A stretch of DNA of 64,000 nucleotides from Scatophagus argus (taxonomy: Eukaryota; Chordata; Actinopteri; Scatophagidae): assembly GCF_020382885.2 (NCBI RefSeq), contig NC_058503.1:23614535-23678534 (forward strand). The letters run 5' to 3'. The translations under genes were made by a program, and so were the position numbers. Shown piece after piece: positions 8,867 to 62,896 of the stretch (the stretch's first letter is position 1; each line of letters begins with the position of its first letter). Below the pieces are notes generated by a model. It was given only the letters and a program-made list of their open reading frames with translations. It ran no database searches and was not told where the DNA came from.

Positions 8867-8957
8867 TTTTTATATCAGTTTGCATTGTCCTCCACGGATC
8901 TCATTAAAGTCTTCACCAAACACTCCTGTCATCTGAACAGTTTCATCAAACTCTAGA
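8867..8957 (-). promoter_or_regulatory. Conserved upstream module of OR1
   Basis: On the gene strand a perfect TATAAAAA (8,874-8,867) lies about 180 bp before the start codon. Upstream of it comes ACTTTAATGAGATCCGTGGAG (reverse of 8,890-8,910) and then a TTTGATGAAA-type string (8,941-8,952). All ten receptor genes have this order of elements, although the DNA between them has diverged. TAATGA suits homeodomain factors such as Lhx2, known OR regulators. The promoter role is inferred. Confidence 0.55.
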
Positions 8958-8959
8958 GA

Positions 8960-9239
8960 TTTGAACCTTTTTTTGAATTTTACTGGATTCTTGCCTCTAT
9001 CACACTTTGCAACTGCATTGCAATCCTTATTACTACAGAAACAGTTTTTAAGTGTTTTATGTTTATGTTGACTGGTTACAGTCTTTGCTGAGCAATACAT
9101 TATGGGAACATTCAACACTAAAGAAAGGCAAATAAATGTAGAAAAAACAAAATGAAAAGTTGAACAAACAAAAACCAAACAAACCCCCATCAGACAAGAT
9201 GAGATGCAACTCACGTCTGTACAGGAGTATTCATAGCCT
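8960..9239. other. No recognised feature
   Basis: This stretch follows the OR1 upstream module. The open frame at 8,870-9,214 on the minus strand has no recognisable domain and no match to the receptor or LINE proteins. I treat it as chance. Confidence 0.5.
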
Positions 9240-9985
9240 TGGAGGCGAGGCTAAGTGAGTTAGCGCCGTACTCTAGATCATAGTCCAGCAGCCCCGGTAG
9301 CTAGCCAGCAGCAGTTAGCCTGTGCGGACCGGCCTGGCTTAGCTGCTGTTAGTCCCCGAGCAGCCGGGAAGTCAGGGAGGTTGGGTGGCGGTTCAAAGGA
9401 AGTGTAGCCTGAAACAAAGGCCCGTGGTTCCCCACCAGCTGCTTTACGTATTGAAACGTTTTTCCCCACTCAGCGACACACCCACTGAGAAACCAACCGT
9501 GGGTATTAGCGATTCTGTTTTGCGATACATGAAGCTGACACCAGCGATCATAGTCAAATGCATCCCGGGGGCCAGAGCAGGCGACATACAGGGCAACTTA
9601 AAGCTGCTGGTGAGAGATAAGCGTAAATATGGTAATATGGTAAATATAGATTGTAACTCGCGTCTGCGCTAATGACACCCGGCTACGCCAGTAGGAGGTC
9701 ACCAAAGTTAGGGTAGGGGTGGTGCGGCTCTTATTTCCACCAATATGGCCAAGTTTATTAGACAACCAACCCCCTGGTTGTCTAATAAACTTGAGGCCAG
9801 GAGGCAGAGTCGCTGTCTTACACACTTCTCTGCTGCTTCTGTAGGACTGCCGCTGTAGCTGACGCTCGCAGTACGGCAATGTGTTAACATGGCAATGCCA
9901 GAAGTTAGGGTGCAATCATCGTATTTGAGTTCTGATTGTTTTTTGTTCGTGTGAATTTGTGGTGGGGCATCCTGCATTATGATCT
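9240..9985 (+). pseudogene. L2 LINE 5' region with ORF1 fragment
   Basis: Contains the L2 5' region and ORF1. From 9,448 the reading is FSPLSDTPTEKPTVGISDSV (the catalytic block is ISDS here, GDS in the copy at 35,770), then LRYMKLTPAIIVKCIPGARA and GDIQGNLKLLVRDKRKYG. The G-x-N-D block is out of frame at 9,660-9,680, and a block reading GGAALISTN-like residues follows near 9,720. A perfect 18-bp hairpin sits at 9,751-9,792. The BEL/Pao fossil begins just to the right, so this L2 copy was probably its target. Confidence 0.7.
9751..9792. repeat. Perfect inverted repeat (18-bp arms, 6-nt loop)
   Basis: Left arm AAGTTTATTAGACAACCA (9,751-9,768), loop ACCCCC, right arm TGGTTGTCTAATAAACTT (9,775-9,792). 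The arms are exact reverse complements. The related L2 ORF1 copy at 2,997-3,060 has no such hairpin at the same place. Confidence 0.9.
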
Positions 9986-10631
9986 ATGATTCTGTTGTGG
10001 CACCTTGCTGAAATGTTTCAGTTAAATTATTGTGAAAAGGTCACTTCCTGTGTAACATTAACCGGAACTTGAGAGCGGGAACTGAGGGAGAGAGGAAAAG
10101 AGATGCGAGATGACTGTCTACTACTGGCTAACCAGGCCTACACGGTAATTATTCTGAATACGGAAATCCATGTACTCCACGTCCTGCAACAAGCTACAGT
10201 TTTAAGGCGAGCAGCGGTATCGCTGCTACACATCCGACAGCAAGCTACGGGTTTCAGCGGACACTCCGTGGAGCGGTTTCGGGCTGCAGCGTAGGTGCTC
10301 AGGTTGGGCAATTATTATGTCTCAGGAAGTTGATGGATAGAATATAAGCTACCGATTAATCATAATAAGCAAGACATTAAAGGGATTTTGGACAATCAAA
10401 AAATCTATTGAATGTTCTGATAATAATTGCTATTGTTTGTTGTCTTGCTGAGAACACTTACATTTATTTGACTTCAGTAATTTGAGAAAGTAATCTCAGG
10501 TGCTGGTTAATTATTAAGGGTGTCATTTTTGTGTTATTTGGTTACTCATTGCCAATTATAGCCACGATATATCCTTGTAACTTACCTTACTTACCTTGCT
10601 TTCTCCATATGGTAATTATTGAAGGTTCAAA

Positions 10632-12494
10632 ATGTCTCAAAGTGGTGATAGTCAATCTGATATCATGTTACATTCGCAAGATATCGGGGAGCTAGATGAG
10701 GGAAAAGTAAGAAAATCCTCTCGTGAAAGACGGATAACACCAAAAATGCAAGAACCGAAAGAGCAAGACTTAATTCAAAAGGAGAAAAAGTTTAAAACAA
10801 CGTATGAAAATTGGAAAAAAGGAGTAAAAGGTATTCGTACAAGGCCGAAGCAAGAGTGCTCTGAAGGTGACATGTATCACACGATGGATGAGGCTGAGAT
10901 GTTTGACTCCAAATTAAAGGAGCTGTATGATAGCATCCGAATCCAAACTACACCAAGCCAAGAAATTTGGTGGAAAGTTGATGCATGCTCTTCTGTCACA
11001 GCAGACTTATTGCAGTTGATGAGAGTGCGGCTCACTGAAGGCGGAGGTCAGTTTGACGCTGAGGCAGAGGGATCAAGATTACGCATGCTACTTGATAATG
11101 AATATGCTAGGTCCATATATGGATCCACGGTTTCCAGAGTTGTTGGCTGCAAAGAGAGCTGAAATTGATATGGGAGCTGCCATTGAAACTCAACGTCTCG
11201 AGAATCAGAGAGACATTGATGTTATTCAAGCAAAGCTAAATGTTTACACTGAAGAAGAGACAAAGGGAAGGGGTGGATCATGCAGTCCTCTATGTAACAA
11301 AGTTAATGATACAAACCCATTCACTCACCCCATACCAGGTCAAGAACAGCAAGCTGTAAAAAATGAGACATCCTTAGTACAAGCATTACAAGAATCCTTA
11401 GCTCTCACTTGCCTTCCAACCCCAGAACCTATTCTATTTTCAGGAGATCCTCTGAAGTTAACAGAATGGAGCACAAGCTTTAAAGCTCTCATAGAAAGAC
11501 GATGCTCTAATCCAGCAGATAGGCTGTTCTACCTGCAAAAGTACATAACAGGGGAAGCAAAATCTTTTCTTGAGGGCAGATTCTACAGGAAAGACGAAGA
11601 AGCCTATCAACTAGCGTGGAATAGGTTGAATGCTAGATATGGACATTCTTTTGTAGTGCAGCGGGCCCTCAGAGAGAAGCTAAATGCATGGCCAAAGATT
11701 GGTGGAAAAGAGTATATCAAGCTGAGAGAATTCAGCAATTTCCTCCAAACATGTAGTAATGCCATGTCTCATATAAAGGGTTTACAGGTTCTGAAGGACT
11801 GCGAGGAGAACCAGAAAATGCTGGTCAAGCTTCCTGAATGGGTGACAACCAGGTGGAACCGCTACGTCTCAGAGGAGCTGGATCAAGGCTATGACTACCC
11901 AAGCTTTCACGAGTTTGCTTCGCTCATCGCTAAAGAGGCACGTATTGCATGTAATCCAGTGTCATCCTTACATGCTTCAAAGCACTCTGCAGAGACCCCG
12001 GTAAGAGAGATGAAGCGCTCAAAAGCAAACACATTTGCCACAAACGTGAAGGCTCCAGTTTCATCAAGCTCCACATTCAAACCAGAATGGCAAACAGGCA
12101 AGTGTATTTGCTGTGGAGAAAACCACTCCATACATAAATGCAAAAGGCTAACAGAAATGTCTGTAGAAGAAAAGAGCGTGTATACATGAGAACAAGTTGT
12201 GTTTTGCATGTCTGAGAAAAGGTCACAACTCTAGAGATTGTAGAAACAGAGCCATGTGTGGCATATGCAGAAAGAGTCACCCAACTCCATTGCATGAAGA
12301 TCGTTTCCCAGCAGTTTCAAAGCAAAGTGCAGGTGGAGAAAGCACATCCTCATTATCATGCAGTGTGAAGGGAGGAAAAGGTGGTAGCACTTCTATGATC
12401 GTGCCTGTGTGGATTTCAGCACCTAACGCTCCTGATAAGGAAACCTTAGCATATGCACTACTCGACACACAAAGTAGTAAGTAAGTAGTAGTAA
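10632..12494 (+). pseudogene. BEL/Pao fossil: Gag and protease region
   Basis: The N-terminal part is lysine- and glutamate-rich. The middle has the BEL Gag-type block beginning SLALTCLPTPEPILFSGDPL and later FYLQKYITGEAKSFLEGRFY, known as the DUF1759-type capsid region. Next come cysteine-histidine knuckles (CICCGENHSIHKC, then CFACLRKGHNSRDC and CGICRKSHPTPLH). The protease motif ALLDTQS closes the region. Such proteins form the retrotransposon particle and cut the polyprotein. The region is broken and is recorded only as a fossil. Confidence 0.85.
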
Positions 12495-14400: not shown

Positions 14401-16340
14401 GTAAGTAGCAAAAAGCTTCAGGCAGCGTTGCAGCCAGTAAAACTGAAGCTCTCCACCATGATGGGGAAAGATTCAATTGTGGAAAATCAAAGAGTATGTG
14501 ATCTCAAAGTCAGAGGTTTCTCCTCAAACATTTCCATCAACTTACCTCCGGCCTACACGAGAGACTTTATTCCTCTTGACCATGCACGTATCCCCACCTG
14601 TCAAACAGCCAACAAATGGAAACACCTTATCAACATAGCCCAAGAGATACCCCCATTAATGGGCTGTGGTGTTGGATTATTGATTGGCTATGACTGTTCG
14701 AGAGCGTTAATTCCAAGAAAGGTCATCACTGGGGGTGACTATGAACCCTACGCCATTAAAACTGATCTCGGTTGGAGCATTCTGGGAAGTGTGCCTCAGC
14801 ATGTGAATGCTAAAGATGTGACTGGTCTTTGTCATCGGGTGTCTGTTGGAGAACTGCCACCTATAACGCCACCTTCGGCCATTAAGGCTCTTGAGTCCGA
14901 TTTTGCAGACACAAAATCATGCGACAAAAGCATATCTCAAGAAGATATTTGCTTCCTGCAGATCTTAAGAGGAGGAATTCAACAAAACGAGCATGGTCAC
15001 CTTGAGATGCCTCTCCCCTTTAAGGTACGTCCTCACCTTCCAGACAATAAAAAGCTGGCCTTGGCTCGACTGAAGCACCTTAAAAGGAAGCTGGACAGAG
15101 ATCCCAAGTTCAAAAGGGACTATGTGAGGTTCAAGGAAGGTGTGTTCAAGCATGATGAGGCAGAGAAAGTAGACACCCAACCAGAGCCTGGGAAAACCTG
15201 GTATATCCCACATCAGGGGGTTTACCACCCCAGGAAACCAGACAAGATCTGGATGGTTTTTGACTGCTCTGCAAAGTATGAAGGCACCTCATTAAATGAT
15301 CATTTGTTAGGATCTGACCTTACAAATGGTCTCACAGCTGTACTATGCCGTTTCCGTAAACATCCCATTGCAGTCATGTGTGATGTGGAAAAGATGTTCC
15401 ACCGGTTTCATGTCAGCAAAGAAGATAGGGGCTATTTGCGGTTTCTCTGGTGGGAAAATGGGGACACAAACTCAGAACCCACAGAATACTGCATGAAGGT
15501 GCACCTGTTTGGAGCATCATCTTCCCCTAGCAGCGCAAATTATGGCATGAAACATCTTGCCAGTCAGAGTGAGAAAGAATGCCCCTTTGCAGCTAGCTTC
15601 ATCAGGAATCATTTTTACGTTGATGATGGCCGCATAAGTGTGCAATCGGTTGGCGAGGCAATTAAGTTAGTGAAGGAAGCCCAATCTGTGTGTGCTAAAG
15701 GAAAGTTGCACCTTCACTAATTTCTTTCTAACAACCGAGAGATACTTGATTCCTTCAGCATTGCAGAATGTGCTGAGGAGGTAAAAAATGTTGATCTCAG
15801 TCATGATGACTTACCGGTGCAAAGAGTGCTAGGTATAAGATGGAACACTGAAAGTGACAACTTCACCTTCAAGGTGACACCTGATGAGAAGCCAGCGACA
15901 CGACGAGGGATTCTCTCAGTCATGGCCTCTTTATACGACCCTTTAGGGTTTCTAGCTCCATTTATTCTTGAAGGAAAAAGAGTGCTGCAGGAGATGTGTC
16001 AGAGAGGTACTGGGTGGGACGAACCACTACCCAGGGACTTGAAGTTCAGGTGGGAGACTTGGATGAAGGATTTGGAAAACCTTGAGGAGATCGAGATTCC
16101 AAGATGCTTCATACCTAACAGCTTTGGTGAGGTCCAGAGAGTTGAGCTACATCATTTTTCTGATGCGAGCAGTCAAGGGTATGGTCAGTGCTCTTACATC
16201 AGATTGTTGAGCAAAGAGAAAGTGCACTGCTCCTTGGTCATGGGCAAAGTGAGAGTTGCACCAACTAAAATAGTCACTATACCAAGGTTGGAGCTAACTG
16301 CGGCAGTAATCTCAGCAGCCATGATACAAGAGATACAAGA
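14401..16340 (+). pseudogene. BEL/Pao fossil: Pol (reverse transcriptase and RNase H region)
   Basis: Typical BEL/Pao Pol blocks appear in order: YTRDFIPLDHARIPTCQTA, GVGLLIGYDCSRALIPRKV and KTDLGWSILGSV before the RT; KIWMVFDCSAKYEGTSLND, MCDVEKMFHRFHV and FYVDDGR (RT active site) within it; and SVMASLYDPLGFLAP and HHFSDASSQGYGQ in the following A17/RNase H part. It ends near IPRLELTAAVISAAMIQEIQ where the LINE tail begins. The region is broken and truncated. Confidence 0.88.
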
Positions 16341-20253: not shown

Positions 20254-21168
20254 TTACTTACACAACAGCTTCTTGAGGTGTTTATAGATTTCTTTCATTT
20301 TCAGTCCATATATGATTGGATTAAAGAGAGGATGATACAGGATGATTTGTAATGTTATTATGAAGCGGGCAGTTTTAGGAAAATCAGTTTCCAGTCGCAG
20401 TAAAAAGACATCAAATGTAATCAAACAGGAAAAGTTGATTAATACCATCAAGTGTGGTAAACAAGTCTGTGCAGCTTTTCTTCTGACTTCTCTACAACTT
20501 CGATAGGATATTATAAATATTCTGGTGTATGTAAAAAGGATAAAGAGCACAGGTAGAAGTACAAGATTTACCAAAACAACCAAACCATATATATTCTGCA
20601 GTCTTGAACTCTCACAGTGAAGTTTGCCAACTGTGCTGTTACAAATGATTCCTTTGAAAGTAAAGTTACAGAGTTTCTTATTAGCATTCAGTACAGCTGG
20701 TCCTACCATCTGACAAACAGGCACAAGCCAAGCTAAAGCCAGAAATATACTGACAGTTGTTTTCCTCATGATAGCTGGATACTGCAGAGGTTTACATATG
20801 GACACATATCTGTCATAAGACATGGCTGCCAACAGTAAGAACTCTGAACCAGCTAAAGAGTAAAATATAAACCACTGAAAGAGGCAGGCTGAATAAGATA
20901 TGATCTGTTTCTCAGATAAAAAGTCAATCAACAGCTTTGGGTAGATCACAGTGCTGTAAAGAAGAGAGTTGATTAACAGAGCTGCAATGAAAATGTACAT
21001 GGGCTCATGGAGGTTTTGATGAATCCAGATGAGATACACAACAGTAGAATTACTGCAGATTATTAGAATATAAGCTGTGAACATGATGACAAAATAAAGA
21101 TATCTGTATTTGTACAAATCCACGTACCCATCAACAGTTATATATGTTACATTTACTCTGTTATCCAT
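20254..21168 (-). CDS. Olfactory receptor OR2 (group A)
   Basis: 304 aa, with the same landmarks and residue numbering as OR1 (N6 glycosylation site, MSYDRY 116-121, KAAQTC 231-236, NPIIY 283-287). Differences from OR1 lie where ligand contacts are expected: LLYSTV at 69-74 (TM2), YSLAGSE at 103-109 (TM3), MVGPAVL at 154-160 (TM4/ECL2), G181 in place of Y, Q191 in place of L, VVLVN in TM5, and I244 with VF near 254-255 (TM6). The downstream flank matches OR1 and OR5. The upstream flank matches OR3 for about 0.9 kb. Intact from start to stop. Confidence 0.96.
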   Translation of the reverse strand: MDNRVNVTYITVDGYVDLYKYRYLYFVIMFTAYILIICSNSTVVYLIWIHQNLHEPMYIFIAALLINSLLYSTVIYPKLLIDFLSEKQIISYSACLFQWFIFYSLAGSEFLLLAAMSYDRYVSICKPLQYPAIMRKTTVSIFLALAWLVPVCQMVGPAVLNANKKLCNFTFKGIICNSTVGKLHCESSRLQNIYGLVVLVNLVLLPVLFILFTYTRIFIISYRSCREVRRKAAQTCLPHLMVLINFSCLITFDVFLLRLETDFPKTARFIITLQIILYHPLFNPIIYGLKMKEIYKHLKKLLCK

Positions 21169-22100
21169 TAAGTTAATCCAGACAAACTGTTAACAGACAA
21201 GACTACTTTCAGTCTTTAAGTCACGATTACATTAACATACCTCATGCAGCAGCTCGTGAGCTTGACTGCACGTGTGTTCGTTGAAATATTGCAGGAATGA
21301 CAGACATCCAAAATGCTGACAATGAACTCACTGAGTTTGTGGGTTGTTATTTTTATCAGCCTGCATGACCCTCCATGGATCTAATTAAATTTCCACCATG
21401 TGCTACTTTTCATCCAAACAACTTCATCAAACTCTGGAGGCCTGAACTCAGAGGTCTTGTTGGGCATATTTGCACCTGTCATACTTTCCTTTGCCCCCTC
21501 ATCACACTTGTGCCTGTATTATACTGTAATTTTTACACACAACAATAGATTGTGTGTTTTAAATATTTTGAATCCTGCAGTGTTCACATCAGCGTTTACT
21601 ACCTCGTAGTTTCTGTCTTCCCTGAAGATTTCCGACATAGCTTGACATGTTGATCAGCGGCAGATGTGAAACCGTTAGCAGAACTGAATTTGGATTTGAG
21701 GTAGTCACAGAAAAGCCAGCAAGGTCTTCTTGAGAAGACTCAGATATGGTTCACTCTCTGTGATTGCACCTAGACTTCAAAACTTCTTTCTGACGTATCC
21801 CAGAAAGAAACTGGCATCTGGCCAGCTGTTAACCAAGCCGACATGTCCCAGTTTCTTCACATCCCCACTGACTTACAATAAAGATGGACAACATGAGACT
21901 CTAAACGTGAAACCAACCATCTGGATGGCCTCCTGGTGGGAGGGGACATGGCTTGTTTCGCCACCTGACAACAGTAGTAGCCGAGACTCATATGGTGATC
22001 AAAGGCAAATATTACAGATGCGTTAAAGAAAACGTTGCCTTTAACCCATCTCAGTGGTATTTTCAACATGGTGATGGAAGCATAAGCTGGTTTTATTCAG
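21169..22100. repeat. Duplicated upstream flank of OR2
   Basis: Nearly identical to 26,698-27,475 upstream of OR3, and the last 40 bp (22,055-22,097) reappear at 30,023-30,060 beyond a Rex1 insertion. Open frames at 21,400-21,609 and 21,730-22,026 have no recognisable domain. The proximal 130 bp also match OR1. Confidence 0.75.
21347..21436 (-). promoter_or_regulatory. Conserved upstream module of OR2
   Basis: Gene strand: GATAAAAATA (near 21,356-21,347), about 185 bp before the start codon. Upstream of it is ATTTAATTAGATCCATGGAG (from 21,390; here TAATTA, a full homeodomain core) and then CCAGAGTTTGATGAAG (21,436-21,421). The order is shared with the other nine genes. Confidence 0.55.
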
Positions 22101-26697: not shown

Positions 26698-27475
26698 TAA
26701 GTTAATCCAGACAAACTGTTAACAGACAAGACTACTTTCAGTCTTTAAGTCACGATTACATTAACATACCTCATGCAGTAGCTCGTGAGCTTGACTGCAC
26801 GTGTGTTCGTTGAAATATTGCAGGAATGACAGACATCCAAAATGCTGACAATGAACTCACTGAGTTTGTGGGTTGTTATTTTTATCAGCCTGCATGACCC
26901 TCCATGGATCTAATTAAATTTCCACCATGTGCTACTTTTCATCCAAACAACTTCATCAAACTCTGGAGGCCTGAACTCAGAGGTCTTGTTGGGCATATTT
27001 GCACCTGTCATACTTTCCTTTGCCCCCTCATCACACTTGTGCCTGTATTATACTGTAATTTTTACACACAACAATAGATTGTGTGTTTTAAATATTTTGA
27101 ATCCTGCAGTGTTCACATCAGCGTTTACTACCTCGTAGTTTCTGTCTTCCCTGAAGATTTCCGACATAGCTTGACATGTTGATCAGCGGCAGATGTGAAA
27201 CCGTTAGCAGAACTGAATTTGGATTTGAGGTAGTCACAGAAAAGCCAGCAAGGTCTTCTTGAGAAGACTCAGATATGGTTCACTCTCTGTGATTGCACCT
27301 AGACTTCAAAACTTCTTTCTGACGTATCCCAGAAAGAAACTGGCATCTGGCCAGCTGTTAACCAAGCCGACATGTCCCAGTTTCTTCACATCCCCACTTA
27401 CAATTAGGTATGGACAACATGAGAACACCCTAAAAGTGAAACCAACCATCTGGATGCCCCCTGGTGGCGAGGAAA
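26698..27475. repeat. Duplicated upstream flank of OR3
   Basis: Close copy of 21,169-21,950 upstream of OR2. It ends at about 27,475 where a Rex1 LINE begins. The string TTTTCAACATGGTGATGGAA, which continues this flank in the OR2 copy, reappears only at 30,025. Confidence 0.75.
26876..26965 (-). promoter_or_regulatory. Conserved upstream module of OR3
   Basis: Same sequence as the OR2 module: GATAAAAATA about 185 bp before the start codon, ATTTAATTAGATCCATGGAG upstream of it (from 26,919), and the TTTGATGAAG string at 26,965-26,950 (gene strand). Confidence 0.55.
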
Positions 27476-35288: not shown

Positions 35289-35605
35289 ACTAGATCACCC
35301 TTTACTCACTGATCTGGCTCTGACATGCACTTGTGTGTTCATTGAAATGTTTCAGGAAACACAACATCCTAAAGTGAGCTGCTTGAGTCTGTGCACAGTT
35401 TTTTATGAGCTTTCATCACTCTGTGGATCTCATTAAGATTTTCATCAAGTGCTCCTTTCATCAACAACATTACGACGTGTCAGAGCTAAAACTCACGGGG
35501 CAAATCAGGCCTGTCACCTCATTTTCTGTGGCCTGTGAGAGTTTACAATTAAAATAAGTTGCACATTACCATTCTGCTGCTACAATGCTGCATTACTTTT
35601 GTATG
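35289..35605. repeat. Duplicated upstream flank of OR4
   Basis: Close copy of 43,730-44,050 upstream of OR5. It ends at about 35,605 where an L2 copy begins. No gene in it. Confidence 0.75.
35399..35440 (-). promoter_or_regulatory. Conserved upstream module of OR4
   Basis: Gene strand: CTCATAAAAAA (35,409-35,399), about 155 bp before the start, and upstream of it TCTTAATGAGATCCACAGAG (near 35,440). The spacer GTGATGAAAG is shorter than in groups B and C. Confidence 0.55.
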
Positions 35606-43729: not shown

Positions 43730-44056
43730 ACTAGATCACCGTTTACTCACTGATCTGGCTCTGATATGCACTTGTGTGTTCATTGAAATGTTTCAGGAAA
43801 CACAACATCCTAAAGTGAGCTGCTTGAGTCTGTGCACAGTTTTTATGAGCTTTCATCACTCTCTGTGGATCTCATTAAGATTTTCATCAAGTGCTCCTTT
43901 CATCAACAACATTACGACGTGTCAGAGCTAAAACTCACGGGGCAAATCAGGCCTGTCACCTCATTTTCTGTGGCCTGTGAGAGTTTACAATTAAAATAAG
44001 TTGCACATTACCATTCTGCTGCTACAATGCTGCATTACTTTGTATGGTGTCCATAA
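43730..44056. repeat. Duplicated upstream flank of OR5
   Basis: Close copy of 35,289-35,605. It ends in an (ATTG)n run at 44,056-44,083. Confidence 0.75.
43840..43881 (-). promoter_or_regulatory. Conserved upstream module of OR5
   Basis: Gene strand: CTCATAAAAAC (43,849-43,839), about 155 bp before the start, with TCTTAATGAGATCCACAGAG upstream of it, as in OR4. Confidence 0.55.
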
Positions 44057-47312: not shown

Positions 47313-47474
47313 AAAGATGATCAACAAATCTTAGTTTAGACTGAGCAACAGGCGTACATGAATTCAGAACATCTCACTTTGAAGATTACATGCAATCAGT
47401 TTGGACTGTTCCCTGCATCTAGTGTGTGTCGACCTTGAGAATTCAGAAAGTGAAGTGTTCGTCTGTATGGCTCG

Positions 47475-47566
47475 TTTTTATGAGGACGTTTCACCCTCCA
47501 TGGATCTCATTAAACTCTCCTCCATGGCCTTCTAACAACTTCATCAAACTTTGGAGTCTGGGCAAG
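47475..47566 (-). promoter_or_regulatory. Conserved upstream module of OR6
   Basis: Gene strand: CTCATAAAAA (47,484-47,475), about 165 bp before the start; upstream AGTTTAATGAGATCCATGGA (from 47,517) followed outward by CCAAAGTTTGATGAAG (47,557-47,542). This is close to the consensus of the ten modules. Confidence 0.6.
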
Positions 47567-47754
47567 AGGAGGTGCTTGATGTCTCTGGGGATCCAAAGCT
47601 GGACAGATGCCCTTTAACATTTCAGGGATAATAAATTTCATGACCACAAATGTTGCGTCAATACAATTTAATTTAAATTTATTTATGTGCAACAAAACTT
47701 ATCTCACTACACTTCACAAATAAGGCAGCTCGAGCAGTGTTGCAGTGGAGTCAC

Positions 47755-48110: not shown

Positions 48111-49065
48111 ATGAAACACTTTGATTTATTTATTAAAAAAGAGACCTAACGTGCCCCATGAGCAAGCACTTAGCAACAGTGTCAAGGCAACACTACCTTT
48201 TTGGCCATAATTTATACCAGAAATTTATGTGCATCTTTCATGAACAATTTTGTGGACACTTATCACTCCGCCCACTTCCACAATCCCAATCCCTTGCTAT
48301 TATCGTTATTCATCCATCATCACCCACTCTCACAACATAGGACGTGAAACTAAGCTTATCCACAATCAGGTAATCATGCAAAAATAACAAAGACACACTA
48401 CGGACACACGAAGTGAAACATGGCCCCTCTTTCTGCACTTCTTATTCAACAGATTCGGGTTAAATCTAGATGGCCACCAATGCAGACTTCAGGTGTACAT
48501 CATCATGTCAAGTCTGAGAGGTTGTGTGACTGCACACTTACATAAGCTGCTGCGATGTGGCTTATTCTATGTATTTCTGTATCCATGATGAGGCTTAATG
48601 AAATGGCAATGGCAATGAACTCCAGTCATTTGGATTCACCATCACTTTTTCATGGACCAGAAGTTCTGTGAATATGAACTCATCGTAACCTCTAGCAGAG
48701 TAGTGGAGGCTGGAGGTTCACATCAAGCTTTGTTGAGCAATTTTCGGCTAAAATGTTTACATCAAGTCCAGGGATCACAGTATCTCAGTGCATCAGTTGA
48801 TACAGCCATCCCCAGGCTGATCTGAAGCAAATCTCCTTAGAAACCTAAAATTGGTTCATTCACAGATTTTGTTCTTTATCACCATTATTTTGTTTTAATT
48901 TATGCACAAAGTGATAATTTGGCAATGAATTTATTCCAGAGCTAGGAGAATATCGGTCATTTAATCTTTTTATGTATGGTGGCCTTTATTGTGAGGACAT
49001 TTAGTTCATACCTGTGTTGTGTTTAAAGTTTCCAGGAAATGTTACAGATTTGATGTAGTATGATT
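48111..49065. other. Intergenic part of array copy 1, no gene
   Basis: No coding region or known repeat seen. It recurs unchanged at 51,324-52,278. Confidence 0.5.
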
Positions 49066-49598
49066 GCTGTCCTGGCTTTTACACAAAATTGATTTGGCTG
49101 TTTATTCAGACACTAAAATCGATTTCACATTTATGTAACAAAGTGCATGTCTGAAAGAATCTTTAGTATCATGAACACTGACTCCATCAAAGTGGTGGCT
49201 TTACTGTTGGCCAGGGGGTTAAAAGTGATCTTTGAAGCAATTAATGTTAACTATGGCAGCTCACTTCATGCATACACAATACACACTTCCTCAATACATG
49301 ACAGAGTGACAGTAATAGAAATAACATTATGGCTAATACACTCCTATTTGTCCATAATTAAATTCAAACATTTTTAAGCAAAACTTCATAACTTCAAAAA
49401 GAATCAAACTTTTGTGTTGGGGTTTTGATTCTTTGCGGCAAAATGAATAGTCATTACGCTGTTGAAGCTGATCATACCATTTATTGACAAATAATCCATT
49501 TTTTAAGATTAAGTACCTGCCAAGAATCACAGAAGTGTCAGCTCTACATTATTTTTACAGAAGACATGGCTGTACATGAGTTACCTTGGTTGATAACA

Positions 49599-50525
49599 TT
49601 AGTTCACTTTGTCTTGACAAAACAATCTCTTGAGGTGTTTAGAAATTTCCTTCATTTTGAGTCCGTATATAATTGGATTAAAGAGTGGATGATACAGGAT
49701 GACTTGTAAGGTCATAGCAAAACGCAGAGTTTTTGGAAAATCTGATTCAAGTTTAACTATAATGACATCATATGCAACCAAACAAGAAAAGTTAATCAAA
49801 ATCAGCAGGTGTGGCAAACAGGTCTGTGCTGCTTTTATCCTGACCTCTCCACAACTGTGGAAAGTTATTATGAATATCTTTGTATATGTAAAAAGTATGA
49901 AAAGCACAGGGAGAAGTGTAACATTTAACAAAACAAACACACCATATACAGAAAGTGTTTTTGACATCACACAGTGAAGTTTGTAAGCTGAATTGTTGCA
50001 AAAGATTCCTTTTAAAGCAAAGTTACAGAGTTTGGTATCTGCACTAAGTGCTACTGGCACTGCAATCTGACATGCAGGCAGAAGCCAAGCCAGAATGAGG
50101 AAAATACTGACTGTTGTTTTCCTCATGATAGCTGGATACTGCAGAGGTTTACATATGGACACATATCTGTCATAAGACATGGCTGCCAACAGTAAGAACT
50201 CTGAACCGTTTAAGGAGTAATACAGGAAACACTGGAAGAGGCAGGCTGAATAAGATATGATCTGTTTCTCAGATAAAAAGTCAATCAAAAGTTTTGGGTA
50301 GATAGTTGTGCTGTAAAGGACAGAATTCATTAGCAAAGCTGCAATGAAAATGTACATGGGCTCATTGAGGTTTTTGTGAATGCAAATCAGACACACAATA
50401 GTAGAATTACAGCAGATTATTAGAATATACACTGTTAACATAATCACAAAATAAAGATATCTGTATTTGTGCACTTCTACATACCCACCAAGTGTAATAA
50501 ATGTTGCATTTAAGTCACTATCCAT
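49599..50525 (-). CDS. Olfactory receptor OR7 (group B, array copy 2)
   Basis: 308 aa, identical to OR6 and OR8 except V149L in TM4 (AWLLPACQ in place of AWLVPACQ). The codons involved (GCAGGCAGAAGCC on the + strand, 50,075-50,087) are those of OR9 and OR10. The Met five codons upstream (50,540) is disregarded as in OR6. An AATAAA lies about 115 bp downstream (49,485-49,480). Confidence 0.96.
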   Translation of the reverse strand: MDSDLNATFITLGGYVEVHKYRYLYFVIMLTVYILIICCNSTIVCLICIHKNLNEPMYIFIAALLMNSVLYSTTIYPKLLIDFLSEKQIISYSACLFQCFLYYSLNGSEFLLLAAMSYDRYVSICKPLQYPAIMRKTTVSIFLILAWLLPACQIAVPVALSADTKLCNFALKGIFCNNSAYKLHCVMSKTLSVYGVFVLLNVTLLPVLFILFTYTKIFIITFHSCGEVRIKAAQTCLPHLLILINFSCLVAYDVIIVKLESDFPKTLRFAMTLQVILYHPLFNPIIYGLKMKEISKHLKRLFCQDKVN

Positions 50526-50687
50526 AAAGATGATCAACAAATCTTAGTTTAGACTGAGCAACAGGCGTACATGAATTCAGAACATCTCACTTTGAAGATT
50601 ACATGCAATCAGTTTGGACTGTTCCCTGCATCTAGTGTGTGTCGACCTTGAGAATTCAGAAAGTGAAGTGTTCGTCTGTATGGCTCG

Positions 50688-50779
50688 TTTTTATGAGGAC
50701 GTTTCACCCTCCATGGATCTCATTAAACTCTCCTCCATGGCCTTCTAACAACTTCATCAAACTTTGGAGTCTGGGCAAG
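50688..50779 (-). promoter_or_regulatory. Conserved upstream module of OR7
   Basis: Exact copy of the OR6 module, displaced by 3,213 bp. Confidence 0.6.
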
Positions 50780-50967
50780 AGGAGGTGCTTGATGTCTCTG
50801 GGGATCCAAAGCTGGACAGATGCCCTTTAACATTTCAGGGATAATAAATTTCATGACCACAAATGTTGCGTCAATACAATTTAATTTAAATTTATTTATG
50901 TGCAACAAAACTTATCTCACTACACTTCACAAATAAGGCAGCTCGAGCAGTGTTGCAGTGGAGTCAC

Positions 50968-51323
50968 CAAACTTCAAGTCCAGTTTCAAGTTCCCATTGT
51001 TCGAGTCCGAGGCAAGTCCAAGTCATTAAAGGAAACTCCGAGTTGAATCCAAGTCAAGTCCAATCCGAATATATTATTGTGTAATTATTATATAATACTG
51101 ATATTATCTTATGCCAAATTACTATGGTGTATTACATAAGATAAAATAAAAATCTGAGGACTCAACTCCGATTTACCCGTCCAAATGCAGTTTGTGCACA
51201 AGTCCGAGTCCAAGTCCAAGTCAGCAGTGCTCGAGTCCGACCAAGTCCAAGTCCTTAAAATTAGGGCTCAAGTCGGACTCGAGTCTGAGTCCTGAACTCG
51301 AGTACCACAAGTCTGAGCTCTAG
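50968..51323. repeat. CAAGTC/GAGTCC minisatellite (array copy 2)
   Basis: Same as 47,755-48,110. Confidence 0.8.
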
Positions 51324-52278
51324 ATGAAACACTTTGATTTATTTATTAAAAAAGAGACCTAACGTGCCCCATGAGCAAGCACTTAGCAACAGTGTCAAGG
51401 CAACACTACCTTTTTGGCCATAATTTATACCAGAAATTTATGTGCATCTTTCATGAACAATTTTGTGGACACTTATCACTCCGCCCACTTCCACAATCCC
51501 AATCCCTTGCTATTATCGTTATTCATCCATCATCACCCACTCTCACAACATAGGACGTGAAACTAAGCTTATCCACAATCAGGTAATCATGCAAAAATAA
51601 CAAAGACACACTACGGACACACGAAGTGAAACATGGCCCCTCTTTCTGCACTTCTTATTCAACAGATTCGGGTTAAATCTAGATGGCCACCAATGCAGAC
51701 TTCAGGTGTACATCATCATGTCAAGTCTGAGAGGTTGTGTGACTGCACACTTACATAAGCTGCTGCGATGTGGCTTATTCTATGTATTTCTGTATCCATG
51801 ATGAGGCTTAATGAAATGGCAATGGCAATGAACTCCAGTCATTTGGATTCACCATCACTTTTTCATGGACCAGAAGTTCTGTGAATATGAACTCATCGTA
51901 ACCTCTAGCAGAGTAGTGGAGGCTGGAGGTTCACATCAAGCTTTGTTGAGCAATTTTCGGCTAAAATGTTTACATCAAGTCCAGGGATCACAGTATCTCA
52001 GTGCATCAGTTGATACAGCCATCCCCAGGCTGATCTGAAGCAAATCTCCTTAGAAACCTAAAATTGGTTCATTCACAGATTTTGTTCTTTATCACCATTA
52101 TTTTGTTTTAATTTATGCACAAAGTGATAATTTGGCAATGAATTTATTCCAGAGCTAGGAGAATATCGGTCATTTAATCTTTTTATGTATGGTGGCCTTT
52201 ATTGTGAGGACATTTAGTTCATACCTGTGTTGTGTTTAAAGTTTCCAGGAAATGTTACAGATTTGATGTAGTATGATT
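51324..52278. other. Intergenic part of array copy 2, no gene
   Basis: Same as 48,111-49,065, with no coding region or known repeat seen. Confidence 0.5.
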
Positions 52279-52811
52279 GCTGTCCTGGCTTTTACACAAA
52301 ATTGATTTGGCTGTTTATTCAGACACTAAAATCGATTTCACATTTATGTAACAAAGTGCATGTCTGAAAGAATCTTTAGTATCATGAACACTGACTCCAT
52401 CAAAGTGGTGGCTTTACTGTTGGCCAGGGGGTTAAAAGTGATCTTTGAAGCAATTAATGTTAACTATGGCAGCTCACTTCATGCATACACAATACACACT
52501 TCCTCAATACATGACAGAGTGACAGTAATAGAAATAACATTATGGCTAATACACTCCTATTTGTCCATAATTAAATTCAAACATTTTTAAGCAAAACTTC
52601 ATAACTTCAAAAAGAATCAAACTTTTGTGTTGGGGTTTTGATTCTTTGCGGCAAAATGAATAGTCATTACGCTGTTGAAGCTGATCATACCATTTATTGA
52701 CAAATAATCCATTTTTTAAGATTAAGTACCTGCCAAGAATCACAGAAGTGTCAGCTCTACATTATTTTTACAGAAGACATGGCTGTACATGAGTTACCTT
52801 GGTTGATAACA

Positions 52812-53738
52812 TTAGTTCACTTTGTCTTGACAAAACAATCTCTTGAGGTGTTTAGAAATTTCCTTCATTTTGAGTCCGTATATAATTGGATTAAAGAGTG
52901 GATGATACAGGATGACTTGTAAGGTCATAGCAAAACGCAGAGTTTTTGGAAAATCTGATTCAAGTTTAACTATAATGACATCATATGCAACCAAACAAGA
53001 AAAGTTAATCAAAATCAGCAGGTGTGGCAAACAGGTCTGTGCTGCTTTTATCCTGACCTCTCCACAACTGTGGAAAGTTATTATGAATATCTTTGTATAT
53101 GTAAAAAGTATGAAAAGCACAGGGAGAAGTGTAACATTTAACAAAACAAACACACCATATACAGAAAGTGTTTTTGACATCACACAGTGAAGTTTGTAAG
53201 CTGAATTGTTGCAAAAGATTCCTTTTAAAGCAAAGTTACAGAGTTTGGTATCTGCACTAAGTGCTACTGGCACTGCAATCTGACATGCAGGTACAAGCCA
53301 AGCCAGAATGAGGAAAATACTGACAGTTGTTTTCCTCATGATAGCTGGATACTGCAGAGGTTTACATATGGACACATATCTGTCATAAGACATGGCTGCC
53401 AACAGTAAGAACTCTGAACCGTTTAAGGAGTAATACAGGAAACACTGGAAGAGGCAGGCTGAATAAGATATGATCTGTTTCTCAGATAAAAAGTCAATCA
53501 AAAGTTTTGGGTAGATAGTTGTGCTGTAAAGGACAGAATTCATTAGCAAAGCTGCAATGAAAATGTACATGGGCTCATTGAGGTTTTTGTGAATGCAAAT
53601 CAGACACACAATAGTAGAATTACAGCAGATTATTAGAATATACACTGTTAACATAATCACAAAATAAAGATATCTGTATTTGTGCACTTCTACATACCCA
53701 CCAAGTGTAATAAATGTTGCATTTAAGTCACTATCCAT
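52812..53738 (-). CDS. Olfactory receptor OR8 (group B, array copy 3)
   Basis: 308 aa, protein identical to OR6. It lies in the last, truncated unit, with its promoter module and about 0.7 kb of upstream DNA still present. The 3' flank has the AATAAA at 52,698-52,693. Start as in OR6 (alternative Met at 53,753). Confidence 0.96.
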   Translation of the reverse strand: MDSDLNATFITLGGYVEVHKYRYLYFVIMLTVYILIICCNSTIVCLICIHKNLNEPMYIFIAALLMNSVLYSTTIYPKLLIDFLSEKQIISYSACLFQCFLYYSLNGSEFLLLAAMSYDRYVSICKPLQYPAIMRKTTVSIFLILAWLVPACQIAVPVALSADTKLCNFALKGIFCNNSAYKLHCVMSKTLSVYGVFVLLNVTLLPVLFILFTYTKIFIITFHSCGEVRIKAAQTCLPHLLILINFSCLVAYDVIIVKLESDFPKTLRFAMTLQVILYHPLFNPIIYGLKMKEISKHLKRLFCQDKVN

Positions 53739-53900
53739 AAAGATGATCAACAAATCTTAGTTTAGACTGAGCAACAGGCGTACATGAATTCAGAACATCT
53801 CACTTTGAAGATTACATGCAATCAGTTTGGACTGTTCCCTGCATCTAGTGTGTGTCGACCTTGAGAATTCAGAAAGTGAAGTGTTCGTCTGTATGGCTCG

Positions 53901-53992
53901 TTTTTATGAGGACGTTTCACCCTCCATGGATCTCATTAAACTCTCCTCCATGGCCTTCTAACAACTTCATCAAACTTTGGAGTCTGGGCAAG
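53901..53992 (-). promoter_or_regulatory. Conserved upstream module of OR8
   Basis: Exact copy of the OR6 module, displaced by 6,426 bp. Confidence 0.6.
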
Positions 53993-54432: not shown

Positions 54433-54494
54433 TAGCTGGATACTGCAGAGGTTTACATATGGACACATATCTGTCATAAGACATGGCTGCCAAC
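54433..54494 (-). pseudogene. 62-bp olfactory receptor fragment
   Basis: TAGCTGGATACTGCAGAGGT onward to GACATGGCTGCCAAC matches, without a mismatch that I can see, the part of the OR genes coding for about residues 114-134 (around MSYDRYVSICKPLQYP). Left neighbour: the cut edge of the tandem array. Right neighbour: a LINE chip. Confidence 0.9.
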
Positions 54495-54623
54495 TGACTG
54501 CCACACAATGCTGCAGTCATGTCAGCCAAAACAGCCCCACAACATAGAGAGCCTTAAGGTACCCAGGACAGATCTCATGCACTCCCAGTGCCGTGCCACT
54601 GAGGAGCTTCCCAACTACCTCAA
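54495..54623 (-). mobile_element. LINE chip, copy of 57,717-57,845
   Basis: TGACTGCCACACAATGCTGC ... CATAGAGAGCCTTAAGGTAC ... GAGGAGCTTCCCAACTACCT matches the LINE at 56,870-58,500 with about ten differences. It begins exactly where the OR chip ends. Confidence 0.85.
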
Positions 54624-55097: not shown

Positions 55098-56024
55098 CTA
55101 GATCACTTTGGCTTGACAGAACAACCTCCTCAGGTGTTTAGAGATTTCCTTCATTTTCAGTCCATATATGACTGGATTAAAGAGGGGATGATACAAGAAT
55201 GCTTGTAGTGTAATTATTAAACGCACCGTTTTTGGAATATCGGATTCCAAACGAACTATAGTCACGTCATATGCACACAGACAGGAAAAGCTGATTAAAA
55301 CCAACAGGTGTGGTAAACAGGTCTGAGCAGCTTTTGTCTTGACTTCTCTGCTACTTCGACAGGTTATTATCAGTATCCTGGTGTATGTAAACAGTATGAA
55401 GAGCAAAGGGAGAAGTGCAGTGTTTAGCAAAGCAACAACACCAAATATGGATCGTGCTCTTGATTTGATACAGTGGAGGTTGTACATTGAATTGTTACAC
55501 AAAATTCCATTTAAAGTGAAATTACAGAGTTTCATGTCAGCACTCAGTATTACTGGGACTGCAATCTGACATGCAGGCAGAAGCCAGGCCAAAATGAGGA
55601 AAATACTGACAGTTGTTTTCCTCATGATAGCTGGATACTGCAGAGGTTTACATATGGACACATATCTGTCATAAGACATGGCTGCCAACAGTAAGAACTC
55701 TGAACCGTTTAAAGAGTAAAATGCATGAAACTGAAAGAGGCAGGCTGAATAAGATATGATCTGTTTCTCAGATAAAAAGTCAATCAACAGCTTTGGGTAG
55801 ATCAAAGTGCTGTAAAGAAGAGAGTTGATTAACAGAGCTGCAATGAAAATGTACATGGGCTCATGGAGGTTTTGATGAATCCAGATGAGATACACAACAG
55901 TAGAATTACTGCAGATTATTAGAATATAAGCTGTGAATATAACCAAAAAATAAAGATATCTGTATTTGTGAACTTCCACATATCCATCAAGAGTTATGTA
56001 TGTCACATTAAGTTTATCATCCAT
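55098..56024 (-). CDS. Olfactory receptor OR9 (group C)
   Basis: 308 aa from MDDKLNVTY. The N-terminal half from residue about 31 to 99 reads like group A (IICSNSTVVYLIWIHQNLHE, LLYSTLIYPKLL), while the C-terminal half is group C (IAVPVILSADMKLCN, IFGVVALLNTALLPLLF, CLCAYDVTIVRLE, tail RLFCQAKVI). TM3 has FHAFYSLNGSEF, a histidine at 100 not found in the others. MSYDRY, KAAQTC and NPVIY (V in place of I) are present. 208 bp (55,730-55,937) are identical to OR4. Intact. Confidence 0.96.
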   Translation of the reverse strand: MDDKLNVTYITLDGYVEVHKYRYLYFLVIFTAYILIICSNSTVVYLIWIHQNLHEPMYIFIAALLINSLLYSTLIYPKLLIDFLSEKQIISYSACLFQFHAFYSLNGSEFLLLAAMSYDRYVSICKPLQYPAIMRKTTVSIFLILAWLLPACQIAVPVILSADMKLCNFTLNGILCNNSMYNLHCIKSRARSIFGVVALLNTALLPLLFILFTYTRILIITCRSSREVKTKAAQTCLPHLLVLISFSCLCAYDVTIVRLESDIPKTVRLIITLQAFLYHPLFNPVIYGLKMKEISKHLRRLFCQAKVI

Positions 56025-56214: not shown

Positions 56215-56305
56215 ATTTTATGAGACTTGTTCACCCTCCATGGATCTCATTAACTCCTCAACCAAGAGGAAAAACTTTGTCAGACTCCAGAGGTCTGAGC
56301 CCACA
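56215..56305 (-). promoter_or_regulatory. Conserved upstream module of OR9
   Basis: Gene strand: CTCATAAAAT (56,224-56,215), about 190 bp before the start; upstream GTTAATGAGATCCATGGAGG (from 56,254) with the same AGGGTGAAC spacer as in group B, then a CTCTGGAGTCTGAC-type string (56,300-56,283). Confidence 0.55.
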
Positions 56306-61518: not shown

Positions 61519-61813
61519 CAAACCATCTCCTCTCATCACAAGGACGAGAACGTCACAATGACAAGCGCCCACTTCAGTGGATAGATTGTCAATGACTTAC
61601 TGACACAGACTTTTGTTAACAAAAATATAATAATAATAATATAATTTTCAAAAGTACAACACATTAGTTAGTCATTACACTGTTTAAGGACACTGTATCC
61701 ATCAAAGTAAGGGCTGTAGTAAGTACATCAAAGTAAGGCCATTCACATGTCTGCCTTATTTTTACAAAATAAATGACTGTACATCACCATTACTGTTGTT
61801 ACTCTTTAACACA
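61519..61813. repeat. Duplicated downstream flank of OR10
   Basis: Nearly identical to the OR9 flank 54,813-55,097, with a shorter (ATA)n run. Confidence 0.75.
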
Positions 61814-62740
61814 CTAGATCACTTTGGCTTGACAGAACAACCTCCTCAGGTGTTTAGAGATTTCCTTCATTTTCAGTCCATATATGACTGGATTAAAGAG
61901 GGGATGATACAAAACTACCTGTAAAGTCATTATTAAACGTACAGTTTTTGCGAGATCAGATCCCAGTCGAACTATAATCACGTCATATGCACACAGACAG
62001 GAAAAGCTGATTAAAACCAACAGGTGTGGTAAACAGGTCTGAGCAGCTTTTGTCTTGACTTCTCTGCTACTTCGACAGGTTATTATCAGTATCCTGGTGT
62101 ATGTAAACAGTATGAAGAGCAAAGGGAGAAGTGCAATGTTTAGCAAAGCAACAACACCAAATATGGATCGTGCTCTTGAACTCACACAATGTAGACTGTA
62201 AACTGAATTGTTACACAAAATTCCATCTAATATGGAATTACAGAGTTTCACGTCAGCACTCAGTATTACTGGGACTGCAATCTGACATGCAGGCAGAAGC
62301 CAGGCCAAAATGAGGAAAATACTGACAGTTGTTTTCCTCATGATAGCTGGATACTGCAGAGGTTTACATATGGACACATATCTGTCATAAGACATGGCTG
62401 CCAACAGTAAGAACTCTGAACCACCTAAAGAGTAATATATGAAAAACTGAAAGAGGCAGGCTGAATAAGATATGATCTGTTTCTCAGATAAAAAGTCAAT
62501 CAACAGCTTTGGGTAGATCGCAGTGCTGAAAACGAGAGAGTTGATTAACAGAGCTGCAATGAAAATGTACATGGGCTCATGGAGGTTTTGATGAATCCAG
62601 ATGAGATACAAGATGGTGACATTGAAGCAGAGTATTAGAATGTATGCTGTAAACATGATCAAAAAATAAAGATATCTGTATTTGTCCACTTCCACAAGCC
62701 CACCAAGAGTTATATAAGTTATATTAAATTCATCATCCAT
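61814..62740 (-). CDS. Olfactory receptor OR10 (group C)
   Basis: 308 aa from MDDEFNITY (N6 glycosylation site). TM1 is distinct: LILCFNVTILYLIWIHQNLH, with an NVT inside the membrane span. LVFSTA at 69-74 and YSLGGSE at 103-109 are as in OR3, and the DNA from about 62,450 to 62,610 matches OR1/OR3 with one difference. ECL2 is CNSILDGILCNNSVYSLHC, TM5 IFGVVALLNIALLPLLF, TM6 CLCAYDVIIVRLG and tail RLFCQAKVI. MSYDRY, KAAQTC and NPVIY are present. Intact. Confidence 0.96.
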   Translation of the reverse strand: MDDEFNITYITLGGLVEVDKYRYLYFLIMFTAYILILCFNVTILYLIWIHQNLHEPMYIFIAALLINSLVFSTAIYPKLLIDFLSEKQIISYSACLFQFFIYYSLGGSEFLLLAAMSYDRYVSICKPLQYPAIMRKTTVSIFLILAWLLPACQIAVPVILSADVKLCNSILDGILCNNSVYSLHCVSSRARSIFGVVALLNIALLPLLFILFTYTRILIITCRSSREVKTKAAQTCLPHLLVLISFSCLCAYDVIIVRLGSDLAKTVRLIMTLQVVLYHPLFNPVIYGLKMKEISKHLRRLFCQAKVI

Positions 62741-62854
62741 TAATGTTTTCTAAAATAAATGTTTAGCAATAAAGGAGGCAAATTAAGCATCTTATTCATT
62801 CACACACTTGTGTGCTCATCATTCAGAAACTGAACTATGTGAATCTGTGGAAAG

Positions 62855-62896
62855 TTTTTATTTGGTTGCTTCACCCTCCAAGGATCTCATTAAACT
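62855..62896 (-). promoter_or_regulatory. Conserved upstream module of OR10
   Basis: Gene strand: AAATAAAAAC (62,863-62,854), about 115 bp before the start, the closest of the ten; upstream AGTTTAATGAGATCCTTGGA (from 62,896) with the AGGGTGAAGC spacer. Confidence 0.55.

What the first reader, a model, noticed from the sequence alone, without database searches (positions are those of the whole stretch)
8867..62896. One upstream module shared by all ten receptor genes
About 115-190 bp before each start codon lies the same ordered module. On the + strand: a TTTTTAT string (TATA-like on the gene strand), a variable 10-15 bp spacer, and then (C)CTCCATGGATCTCATTAAA. Seven copies outside group A's OR4/OR5 add a CTTCATCAAACT- or related string 25-40 bp further. 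Positions: 8,867; 21,347; 26,876; 35,399; 43,840; 47,475; 50,688; 53,901; 56,215; 62,855. The DNA around it has diverged strongly between groups, and the module survives in OR10, where its distance to the start has changed. It contains TAATGA/TAATTA, a fit for homeodomain factors such as Lhx2 that are known to act on OR promoters. It may be the proximal promoter or first-exon control block for this subfamily.
Basis: partly seen in the sequence, partly recalled or inferred. Interest (0 to 1): 0.8.

Follow-up and report, generated by a model that had tools for sequence, protein, structure and literature searches.

The report
Shared promoter of odorant-receptor genes
All ten odorant-receptor genes in this stretch of a fish-like genome keep the same short control block just before their likely transcription start, laid out like a two-protein docking site known from mouse receptor enhancers; this suggests how such genes may be switched on, but no binding or transcription data were available to prove it.

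Summary
The module is real. All ten receptor genes carry it, and within 4 substitutions it occurs nowhere else in the window. On the gene strand it reads TTAAT(G/T)AGATCC-NNN-GAG, with ATAAAA starting 29-33 bp after TAAT (31 bp in 8 of 10). Between lineages the flanks are near the level of unrelated DNA (0.45 against 0.42 identity), while module (0.88), TATA (0.84) and initiator (0.74) are kept: the profile of a core promoter under selection. The two halves match a homeodomain (Lhx2-type) and an Ebf-like site, in the order, orientation and 1-bp spacing of the mouse "Greek Island" composite motif, reported depleted from mouse OR promoters. In the same genome 17 of 19 genes of this cluster carry the composite, against 0 of 39 other OR upstream stretches sampled: it is subfamily-specific. 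A perfect composite lies 2.4 kb before another OR cluster. Weak points: the Ebf half is imperfect in every cluster copy; 1-bp spacing is not clearly enriched genome-wide; two intact cluster genes lack the composite; no transcription or binding data exist here.

The parts
8890..8906 (-). OR1 composite TAATGAG-A-TCCGTGGAG; TATA 8868-8874; predicted start A at 8843; gene 7774-8688
21371..21387 (-). OR2 composite TAATTAG-A-TCCATGGAG; TATA 21351-21357; predicted start A at 21323; gene 20254-21168
26900..26916 (-). OR3 composite TAATTAG-A-TCCATGGAG; TATA 26880-26886; predicted start A at 26852; gene 25783-26697
35419..35435 (-). OR4 composite TAATGAG-A-TCCACAGAG; TATA 35401-35407; predicted start A at 35375; gene 34332-35246
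43861..43877 (-). OR5 composite TAATGAG-A-TCCACAGAG; TATA 43841-43847; predicted start A at 43816; gene 42773-43687
47496..47512 (-). OR6 composite TAATGAG-A-TCCATGGAG; TATA 47476-47482; predicted start A at 47451; gene 46386-47312
50709..50725 (-). OR7 composite TAATGAG-A-TCCATGGAG; TATA 50689-50695; predicted start A at 50664; gene 49599-50525
53922..53938 (-). OR8 composite TAATGAG-A-TCCATGGAG; TATA 53902-53908; predicted start A at 53877; gene 52812-53738
56236..56252 (-). OR9 composite TAATGAG-A-TCCATGGAG; TATA 56216-56222; predicted start A at 56191; gene 55098-56024
62876..62892 (-). OR10 composite TAATGAG-A-TCCTTGGAG; TATA 62856-62862; predicted start A at 62831; gene 61814-62740

Best explanation
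The module is the core promoter of this OR subfamily. From 5' to 3' on the gene strand it has a LIM-homeodomain (Lhx2-type) site TAATKAG, one spacer base, an imperfect Ebf (O/E) site TCCnnnGAG, a TATA box at about -31, and a TCA initiator at +1, giving a 5' leader of 91-167 nt. Shown here: the sequence layout, its near-fixed spacings, its conservation against saturated flanks, and its restriction to this subfamily among the OR genes sampled. Inferred: transcription starts at the TCA; Lhx2 (or another homeodomain protein such as Emx2) and an Ebf protein bind side by side, as on the mouse Greek Island composite motif; their joint binding about 14 bp upstream of TATA recruits the general transcription machinery and makes the gene eligible for choice in an olfactory neuron. 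The promoter part is very likely (about 0.9); the Lhx2+Ebf composite reading is moderately likely (about 0.6). The overall figure below was lowered from 0.7 to 0.62 on checking, because the invariance of TAAT, TCC and GAG among the 17 cluster copies is partly built into how the copies were called, and the two full matches to the published pattern come from one duplicated lineage.
For: Module unique to the ten OR promoters in the window. Three-peaked conservation over 14 lineage pairs against an unrelated-DNA level of 0.416; with 8 lineages: module 0.895, TATA 0.845, initiator 0.767, upstream flank and leader 0.43-0.45. TAAT-TATA 31 bp in 8 of 10 genes and TATA-TCA 31-34 bp in 10 of 10, while TATA-ATG varies 121-197. 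Of 64 3-mers x 80 offset windows after TATA, only TCA at this offset is present in 6 of 6 representatives. Of 133 TAATKA sites in the window, exactly the 10 modules have a published O/E core (TCCCyngrg, from Table 1 of PMC3247239) with at most 1 mismatch at the Greek Island spacing; the other 63 geometries have 0-2 hits; chance per site 0.0014. The mouse J-element composite, derived from its printed mutagenic primers (PMC7804114), fits the published composite pattern (PMC11643329) in the same register. 17 of 19 OR genes of the extended cluster carry the composite; two of them, from one duplicated lineage with spacer G, match the published pattern at all 17 positions.
Against: All ten window copies have a non-C at the 4th position of the Ebf core, and their spacer A falls outside the published pattern in 10 of 10 (OR1 fails at a second position). 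The published pattern is degenerate (204 hits in the window against 117 expected). Genome-wide, perfect homeodomain-Ebf pairs are not clearly enriched at the 1-bp spacing (11 against 3-13 distinct strings at other gaps, P about 0.09; against the reversed control P about 0.003). Two intact cluster genes lack the composite (L012:988, L013:5910). Of the 7 flank genes with the composite, TCA is displaced to 36 bp in two, not initiator-like in one and absent in two, and the TATA string differs (ATAAGA or ATTAAAA) in three. Predicted leaders contain 3-5 upstream ATGs, so the start or splicing may differ. The preprint PMC11643329 found that Lhx2 and Ebf1 co-bind the composite in vitro but not cooperatively. 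No expression, 5' RACE, ATAC or ChIP data.
Confidence: 0.62

Rival explanations
1. A core promoter with a homeodomain site, but the second half (ATCC-NNN-GAGG) is bound by some factor other than Ebf, or by a homeodomain partner; the likeness to the Greek Island composite is accidental.
For: The Ebf core misses the 4th C in all ten window copies; spacer A is outside the published pattern; genome-wide spacing enrichment is weak; with free choice of geometry a match with at most 1 mismatch has 4.3% probability per site.
Against: At the geometry fixed beforehand from the literature the chance is 0.14% per site; within the Ebf half the window copies vary only at its three central positions; Monahan et al. 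state that the Ebf half of composites tolerates pyrimidine/purine stretches (PMC5608512 section 7). An X-box (RFX) reading, motif recalled, fails because the central CCATGG is kept in only 6 of 10.
Confidence: 0.28
2. The module is only residual homology of recent tandem duplicates or gene conversion and has no function.
For: Duplicates are recent in three groups (OR2/3, OR4/5, OR6-8), and coding regions are homogenised between OR1, OR2 and OR4 (2 of 106-110 fourfold sites differ).
Against: Between lineages the flanks are at 0.45 identity, close to unrelated DNA, on both sides of a 21-bp block at 0.88. The OR1-OR4 coding similarity stops within 5 bp of the start and stop codons, so it does not explain the promoter; conversion tracts of about 20 bp at three separate spots per gene would be needed (inference).
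Confidence: 0.03
3. The module is transcribed: part of a 5' exon, a small upstream ORF or a leader structure.
For: CCATGG looks like a start context and opens MEGETSS-stop in OR6-8, MEGEQVS-stop in OR9 and MEGHAG-stop in OR2 and OR3.
Against: That ATG is lost in OR1, OR4, OR5 and OR10; a conserved TATA box and initiator lie downstream of it.
Confidence: 0.05

Closest known systems
Lhx2/Ebf composite motif of mouse Greek Island OR enhancers (Monahan et al. 2017, PMC5608512; pattern in PMC11643329)
   Same: Homeodomain site, 1-bp spacer, Ebf-like site, same order and orientation; an imperfect Ebf half is tolerated there too; association with OR genes.
   Different: Here it is in the proximal promoter of each gene, about 14 bp before a TATA box; in mouse it marks intergenic enhancers and is reported depleted from OR promoters. 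The spacer base is A in 15 of 17 copies and the Ebf 4th C is absent in all 17.
Mammalian OR proximal promoters with O/E and homeodomain sites (Young et al. 2011, PMC3247239)
   Same: Same two classes of site, close upstream of the start.
   Different: Young et al. report TATA predictions at -60 to -10 in 39% of promoters, and a review states that TATA position does not track the start closely (PMC5318403). Here TATA, TCA and the paired site are in near-fixed register in all ten window genes.
J element / H and P element homeodomain motifs (PMC7804114)
   Same: TTTAATGA shared with AACTTTTTAATGA; composite HD2 of J has the same register.
   Different: J is a long-range enhancer of a whole cluster, not a per-gene promoter, and its region was not found in zebrafish (PMC5638857).

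Membership tests
RNA polymerase II TATA/Inr core promoter | TATA-like box about 25-35 bp before an initiator, spacing conserved | tested here: met
   TCA at 31-34 bp in 10 of 10 window genes; full YYANWYY (consensus recalled) in 7 of 10; only 3-mer in register in 6 of 6 representatives. Less uniform outside the window: 5 of 7 flank carriers have some TCA 31-36 bp after TATA, one of them not initiator-like; 2 have none.
RNA polymerase II TATA/Inr core promoter | Transcription actually starts there | not testable with these tools
   No RNA data.
Greek Island type Lhx2/Ebf composite motif | Lhx2-type site TAATKA followed at 1-bp spacing by an Ebf-like site in fixed orientation | tested here: met
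   10 of 10 window genes with Ebf core at 1 mismatch; 17 of 19 cluster genes match TAATKAR-N-TCC-NNN-GAG.
Greek Island type Lhx2/Ebf composite motif | Matches the published 17-position pattern | tested here: inconclusive
   0 of 10 window copies match in register: 9 fail only at the spacer, OR1 at two positions. 2 of 7 flank copies, one duplicated lineage, match fully.
Greek Island type Lhx2/Ebf composite motif | Bound by Lhx2 and Ebf in olfactory neurons | not testable with these tools
   No ChIP data.
Greek Island (intergenic OR enhancer) | Intergenic, distal to promoters, contacts other islands | tested here: not met
   The window elements lie 44-64 bp before the predicted start of each gene; contacts not testable. 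Not filed as Greek Islands.
General OR promoter motif of this genome | Present before OR genes of all subfamilies | tested here: not met
   0 of 39 upstream stretches (771-951 bp) of other OR genes have it at 1 mismatch or less; 6 hits at 2 mismatches; 0 of 5 further distant ORs in L013-L015, 600 bp or less, gene strand. These are 44 of about 118 matches outside the subfamily. Promoters beyond a 5' intron would be missed.

The most novel reading that the evidence does not exclude
In this OR subfamily the enhancer grammar that mouse keeps in its 63 or so intergenic Greek Islands is built into nearly every promoter, locked in register with TATA and initiator. Each gene would then carry its own Lhx2/Ebf docking site and might enter, or seed, the receptor-choice hub without distal islands. 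A perfect TAATGAGATCCCATGGGA composite 2.4 kb before a different OR cluster (C11:19003381) would be a teleost Greek Island using the same core.
Probability: 0.3. Interest if true: 0.8.

Novelty: new variant of a known kind. Interest (0 to 1): 0.5.

Why it matters
How one receptor gene is chosen is best understood in mouse, where composite Lhx2/Ebf sites are reported to be enriched in enhancers and depleted from promoters. A paper on TAAR enhancers notes that teleosts may use uncharacterised enhancers of their own (PMC8213717, passages). An OR subfamily with the composite in 17 of 19 promoters, next to two intact siblings that lack it, is a compact natural experiment: it predicts start sites, binding sites, and which genes should be silent or differently controlled. 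I saw no report of such a fish promoter in the titles and abstract starts listed by my searches of the held open-access library (most listings were capped, for example 20 of 320 papers), nor in passages of three fish-related or review papers; most subscription papers are not held.

Tried and rejected
Tried and rejected: upstream ORF or exon reading; RFX X-box reading of CCATGG (motif recalled; centre not conserved); pure residual homology. The published degenerate composite pattern is too loose to use alone. Genome-wide enrichment of the 1-bp spacing was not clear. Three pattern hits at C11:19.012-19.018 Mb lie inside OR coding sequence; 13 pattern hits outside the OR clusters that I fetched (L016-L028, 6-8 kb each) show no OR by tblastn. 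A promoter-like match in L045 looked to me like part of a repeat (not tested) and was dropped. Of four other perfect composites fetched, one (C24:3007464) lies inside a 966-codon open frame; the other three were not pursued. The viral and prokaryote collections gave no relative of the OR6 protein. No tandem-repeat array at score 300. One search used a pattern that I had mis-specified and found nothing; one search is the corrected one.

Dropped before counts: L073 (a 101-bp stretch requested by mistake); a truncated 7-base match at the end of L038, removed by requiring full length; the OR1-OR2 pair in the identity averages (leaders 96% identical).
Full report
WHAT IS THERE. The window holds ten intact odorant-receptor genes, all on the - strand; the three scanned with Pfam are 7tm_4 olfactory receptors. 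Upstream of each lies one copy of CTCCATGGATCTCATTAAA (0-3 substitutions), and within 4 substitutions there is no other copy on either strand. On the gene strand the element reads TTAATKAGATCC-NNN-GAG. The ten copies come from about six lineages: OR1; OR2/OR3; OR4/OR5; OR6-8 (units 3213 bp apart); OR9; OR10.

CONSERVATION. Among the six lineages I compared 14 pairs (OR1-OR2 left out because their leaders are 96% identical). Identity was 0.455 in the 120 columns upstream, 0.88 in the 21-bp module, 0.545 between module and TATA, 0.844 in the TATA block, 0.508 between TATA and initiator, 0.741 in the initiator and 0.452 in the rest of the leader. Random pieces of the window aligned with the same program (25 sets of six, fewer refinement rounds) give 0.416 (sd 0.124). 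With two more lineages from outside the window the pattern is the same. A blind search for shared words in 400 bp gives TTAATGAGATCC with 1 mismatch in total; 12 shuffled sets give 11-14 at best.

GEOMETRY. TAAT to ATAAAA is 31 bp in 8 of 10 genes (29 in OR4, 33 in OR1). From the base before ATAAAA to the A of a TCA it is 31 bp in 7 genes, 32 in OR4 and 34 in OR2 and OR3. The full initiator consensus YYANWYY (recalled) is met in 7 of 10; OR1-3 have TCATTGT. Meanwhile TATA to ATG varies from 121 to 197 bp. Testing all 64 trinucleotides in 80 offset windows after the TATA box, only TCA in the initiator window is present in 6 of 6 representatives (OR1 and OR2 are not independent here). The predicted leaders are 91-167 nt and contain 3-5 upstream ATGs, which is unexplained and may mean splicing.

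WHICH FACTORS. [quoted passage not shown] The second half, TCCnnnGAG, matches 8 of 9 positions of the O/E core TCCCyngrg printed in Table 1 of PMC3247239 (passages) in all ten copies, always missing the 4th C. In mouse Greek Islands the two sites are separated by 1 bp (PMC11643329, passages), and the Ebf half tolerates pyrimidine/purine stretches (PMC5608512, section 7). Of 133 TAATKA sites in the window, exactly the ten modules have an O/E core with at most one mismatch at that geometry; the 63 other geometries have 0-2; the chance per site is 0.0014 for this geometry and 0.043 for any. The register was checked against an experimentally tested composite, HD2 of the mouse J element. Its sequence follows from the printed mutagenic primers and the stated changes, and it fits the published pattern at one register only, the one used here. 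Against this, the spacer base in all ten copies is A, which the published pattern excludes, that pattern is loose, and the same preprint saw no cooperative binding of Lhx2 and Ebf1 on composites in vitro.

THE REST OF THE GENOME. The window is C11:23614535-23678534 of a 570.7-Mb assembly. Of 15 places with at most 1 mismatch to the 19-mer, 14 lie in this OR cluster and its flanks and 1 lies on C14 without an OR. At up to 3 mismatches there are 244 places against 57 for the reversed pattern; only the first were listed, most are not in OR clusters, and this excess is unexplained. The flanks add nine intact genes of the subfamily; 7 of 9 carry the composite, so 17 of 19 in all. In those 17, positions 5, 7, 8 (spacer) and 12-14 (centre of the Ebf half) vary; TAAT, TCC and GAG do not, but keeping them was the criterion for calling a copy, so only the count 17 of 19 is informative. 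Two genes of one duplicated lineage have spacer G and then match the published pattern at 17 of 17 positions. TAAT-TATA is 31 bp in 14 of 17. The promoter is less uniform in the flanks: TCA at 36 bp in two genes, not initiator-like in one, absent in two; TATA reads ATAAGA or ATTAAAA in three. Two intact genes lack the composite: L012:988 has lost the homeodomain half and keeps TCCTTGGAG; in L013:5910 hardly any of it is recognisable. The genome has at least 137 matches to the OR family. Of 39 upstream stretches of OR genes of other subfamilies (20 of 951 bp, 19 of 771 bp) none has the composite with at most 1 mismatch, nor do five distant ORs in L013-L015. As far as sampled (44 of about 118 other matches), the composite promoter is a property of this subfamily.

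A SECOND SITE. Perfect pairs TAATKA + TCCCNNGGGA with 0-9 bp between occur 79 times genome-wide against 41 for the reversed control. Eleven have the Greek Island spacing, not clearly above the other spacings (P about 0.09; about 0.003 against the reversed control). One of these eleven, TAATGAGATCCCATGGGA at C11:19003381, lies 2.4 kb before the first gene of a different OR cluster, without similarity to the window promoters beyond short chance-like matches. Homeodomain cores around it are not clearly dense (8 within 200 bp, 5.1 expected), and other genes there were not excluded. OR territory with 5 kb on each side is 0.13% of the genome, so 0.014 of eleven is expected; this was noticed after the fact. 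TAATGAGATCCNNNGRG has 25 places in the genome: 11 in this OR cluster, that one beside the other cluster, and 13 elsewhere; its reversed control has 0.

MECHANISM. Most likely Lhx2 (or a related homeodomain protein) and an Ebf protein bind side by side at -64 to -44, in register with a TATA box at -31 and a start at the TCA. Layout, spacing and conservation are shown; factor identity, start site and effect are inferred. In mouse, PMC11643329 describes OR promoters as lacking composites, and PMC5608512 reports only 10 OR promoters significantly bound by both factors within 500 bp of the start. If the element works here as it does in islands, these promoters would differ from mouse promoters in kind.

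VERDICT. A real, conserved, subfamily-specific TATA/initiator promoter with a Lhx2/Ebf-like composite: a new variant of a known kind. It is of moderate interest as it stands and of higher interest if binding is shown.

Noticed in passing
OR1, OR2, OR4 coding regions (7774-8688, 20254-21168, 34332-35246): Coding sequences are nearly identical even at fourfold-degenerate sites (2 of 106-110 differ), while the promoter and leader of OR4 have diverged from those of OR1 and OR2; OR1-OR4 similarity runs from 2 bp before the start codon to 5 bp after the stop. This looks like gene conversion confined to the coding region.
   Followed up: partly
54434-54511 (- strand): Isolated OR coding fragment of about 28 codons between OR8 and OR9.
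   Followed up: no
46386-53940: OR6, OR7 and OR8 lie in units 3213 bp apart; OR6-OR7 are 99.6-100% identical over kilobases: very recent triplication.
   Followed up: no
L012:988 and L013:5910 (C11:23.68-23.70 Mb): Two intact subfamily genes lack the composite: L012:988 has lost the homeodomain half, keeps the Ebf-like half and has an altered TATA string; in L013:5910 hardly any of the module is recognisable.
   Followed up: partly
L082, C11:19003381-19003398: Perfect homeodomain-Ebf composite 2.4 kb before another OR cluster; candidate distal enhancer.
   Followed up: partly
window gene strand just 5' of the composite (e.g. 47513-47528): A second, weaker TGGWGGA-like string lies directly upstream of the homeodomain site in several copies; in OR6-8 it repeats CCATGGAGG on both sides of TAATGAG.
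   Followed up: no
host genome G000: The 19-mer with up to 3 mismatches has 244 places against 57 for the reversed pattern, far more than the OR cluster explains.
   Followed up: no
1558-2262, 14458-15720, 28543-29385; also 11098-12189, 29995-30720, 31094-31840: Retroelement remains between the OR genes: reverse-transcriptase matches in the first three (14458-15720 below Pfam's cut-off), DUF1759 in 11098-12189, an ALKBH8_N match in 28543-29385 and 29995-30720; 31094-31840 has no Pfam match.
   Followed up: no
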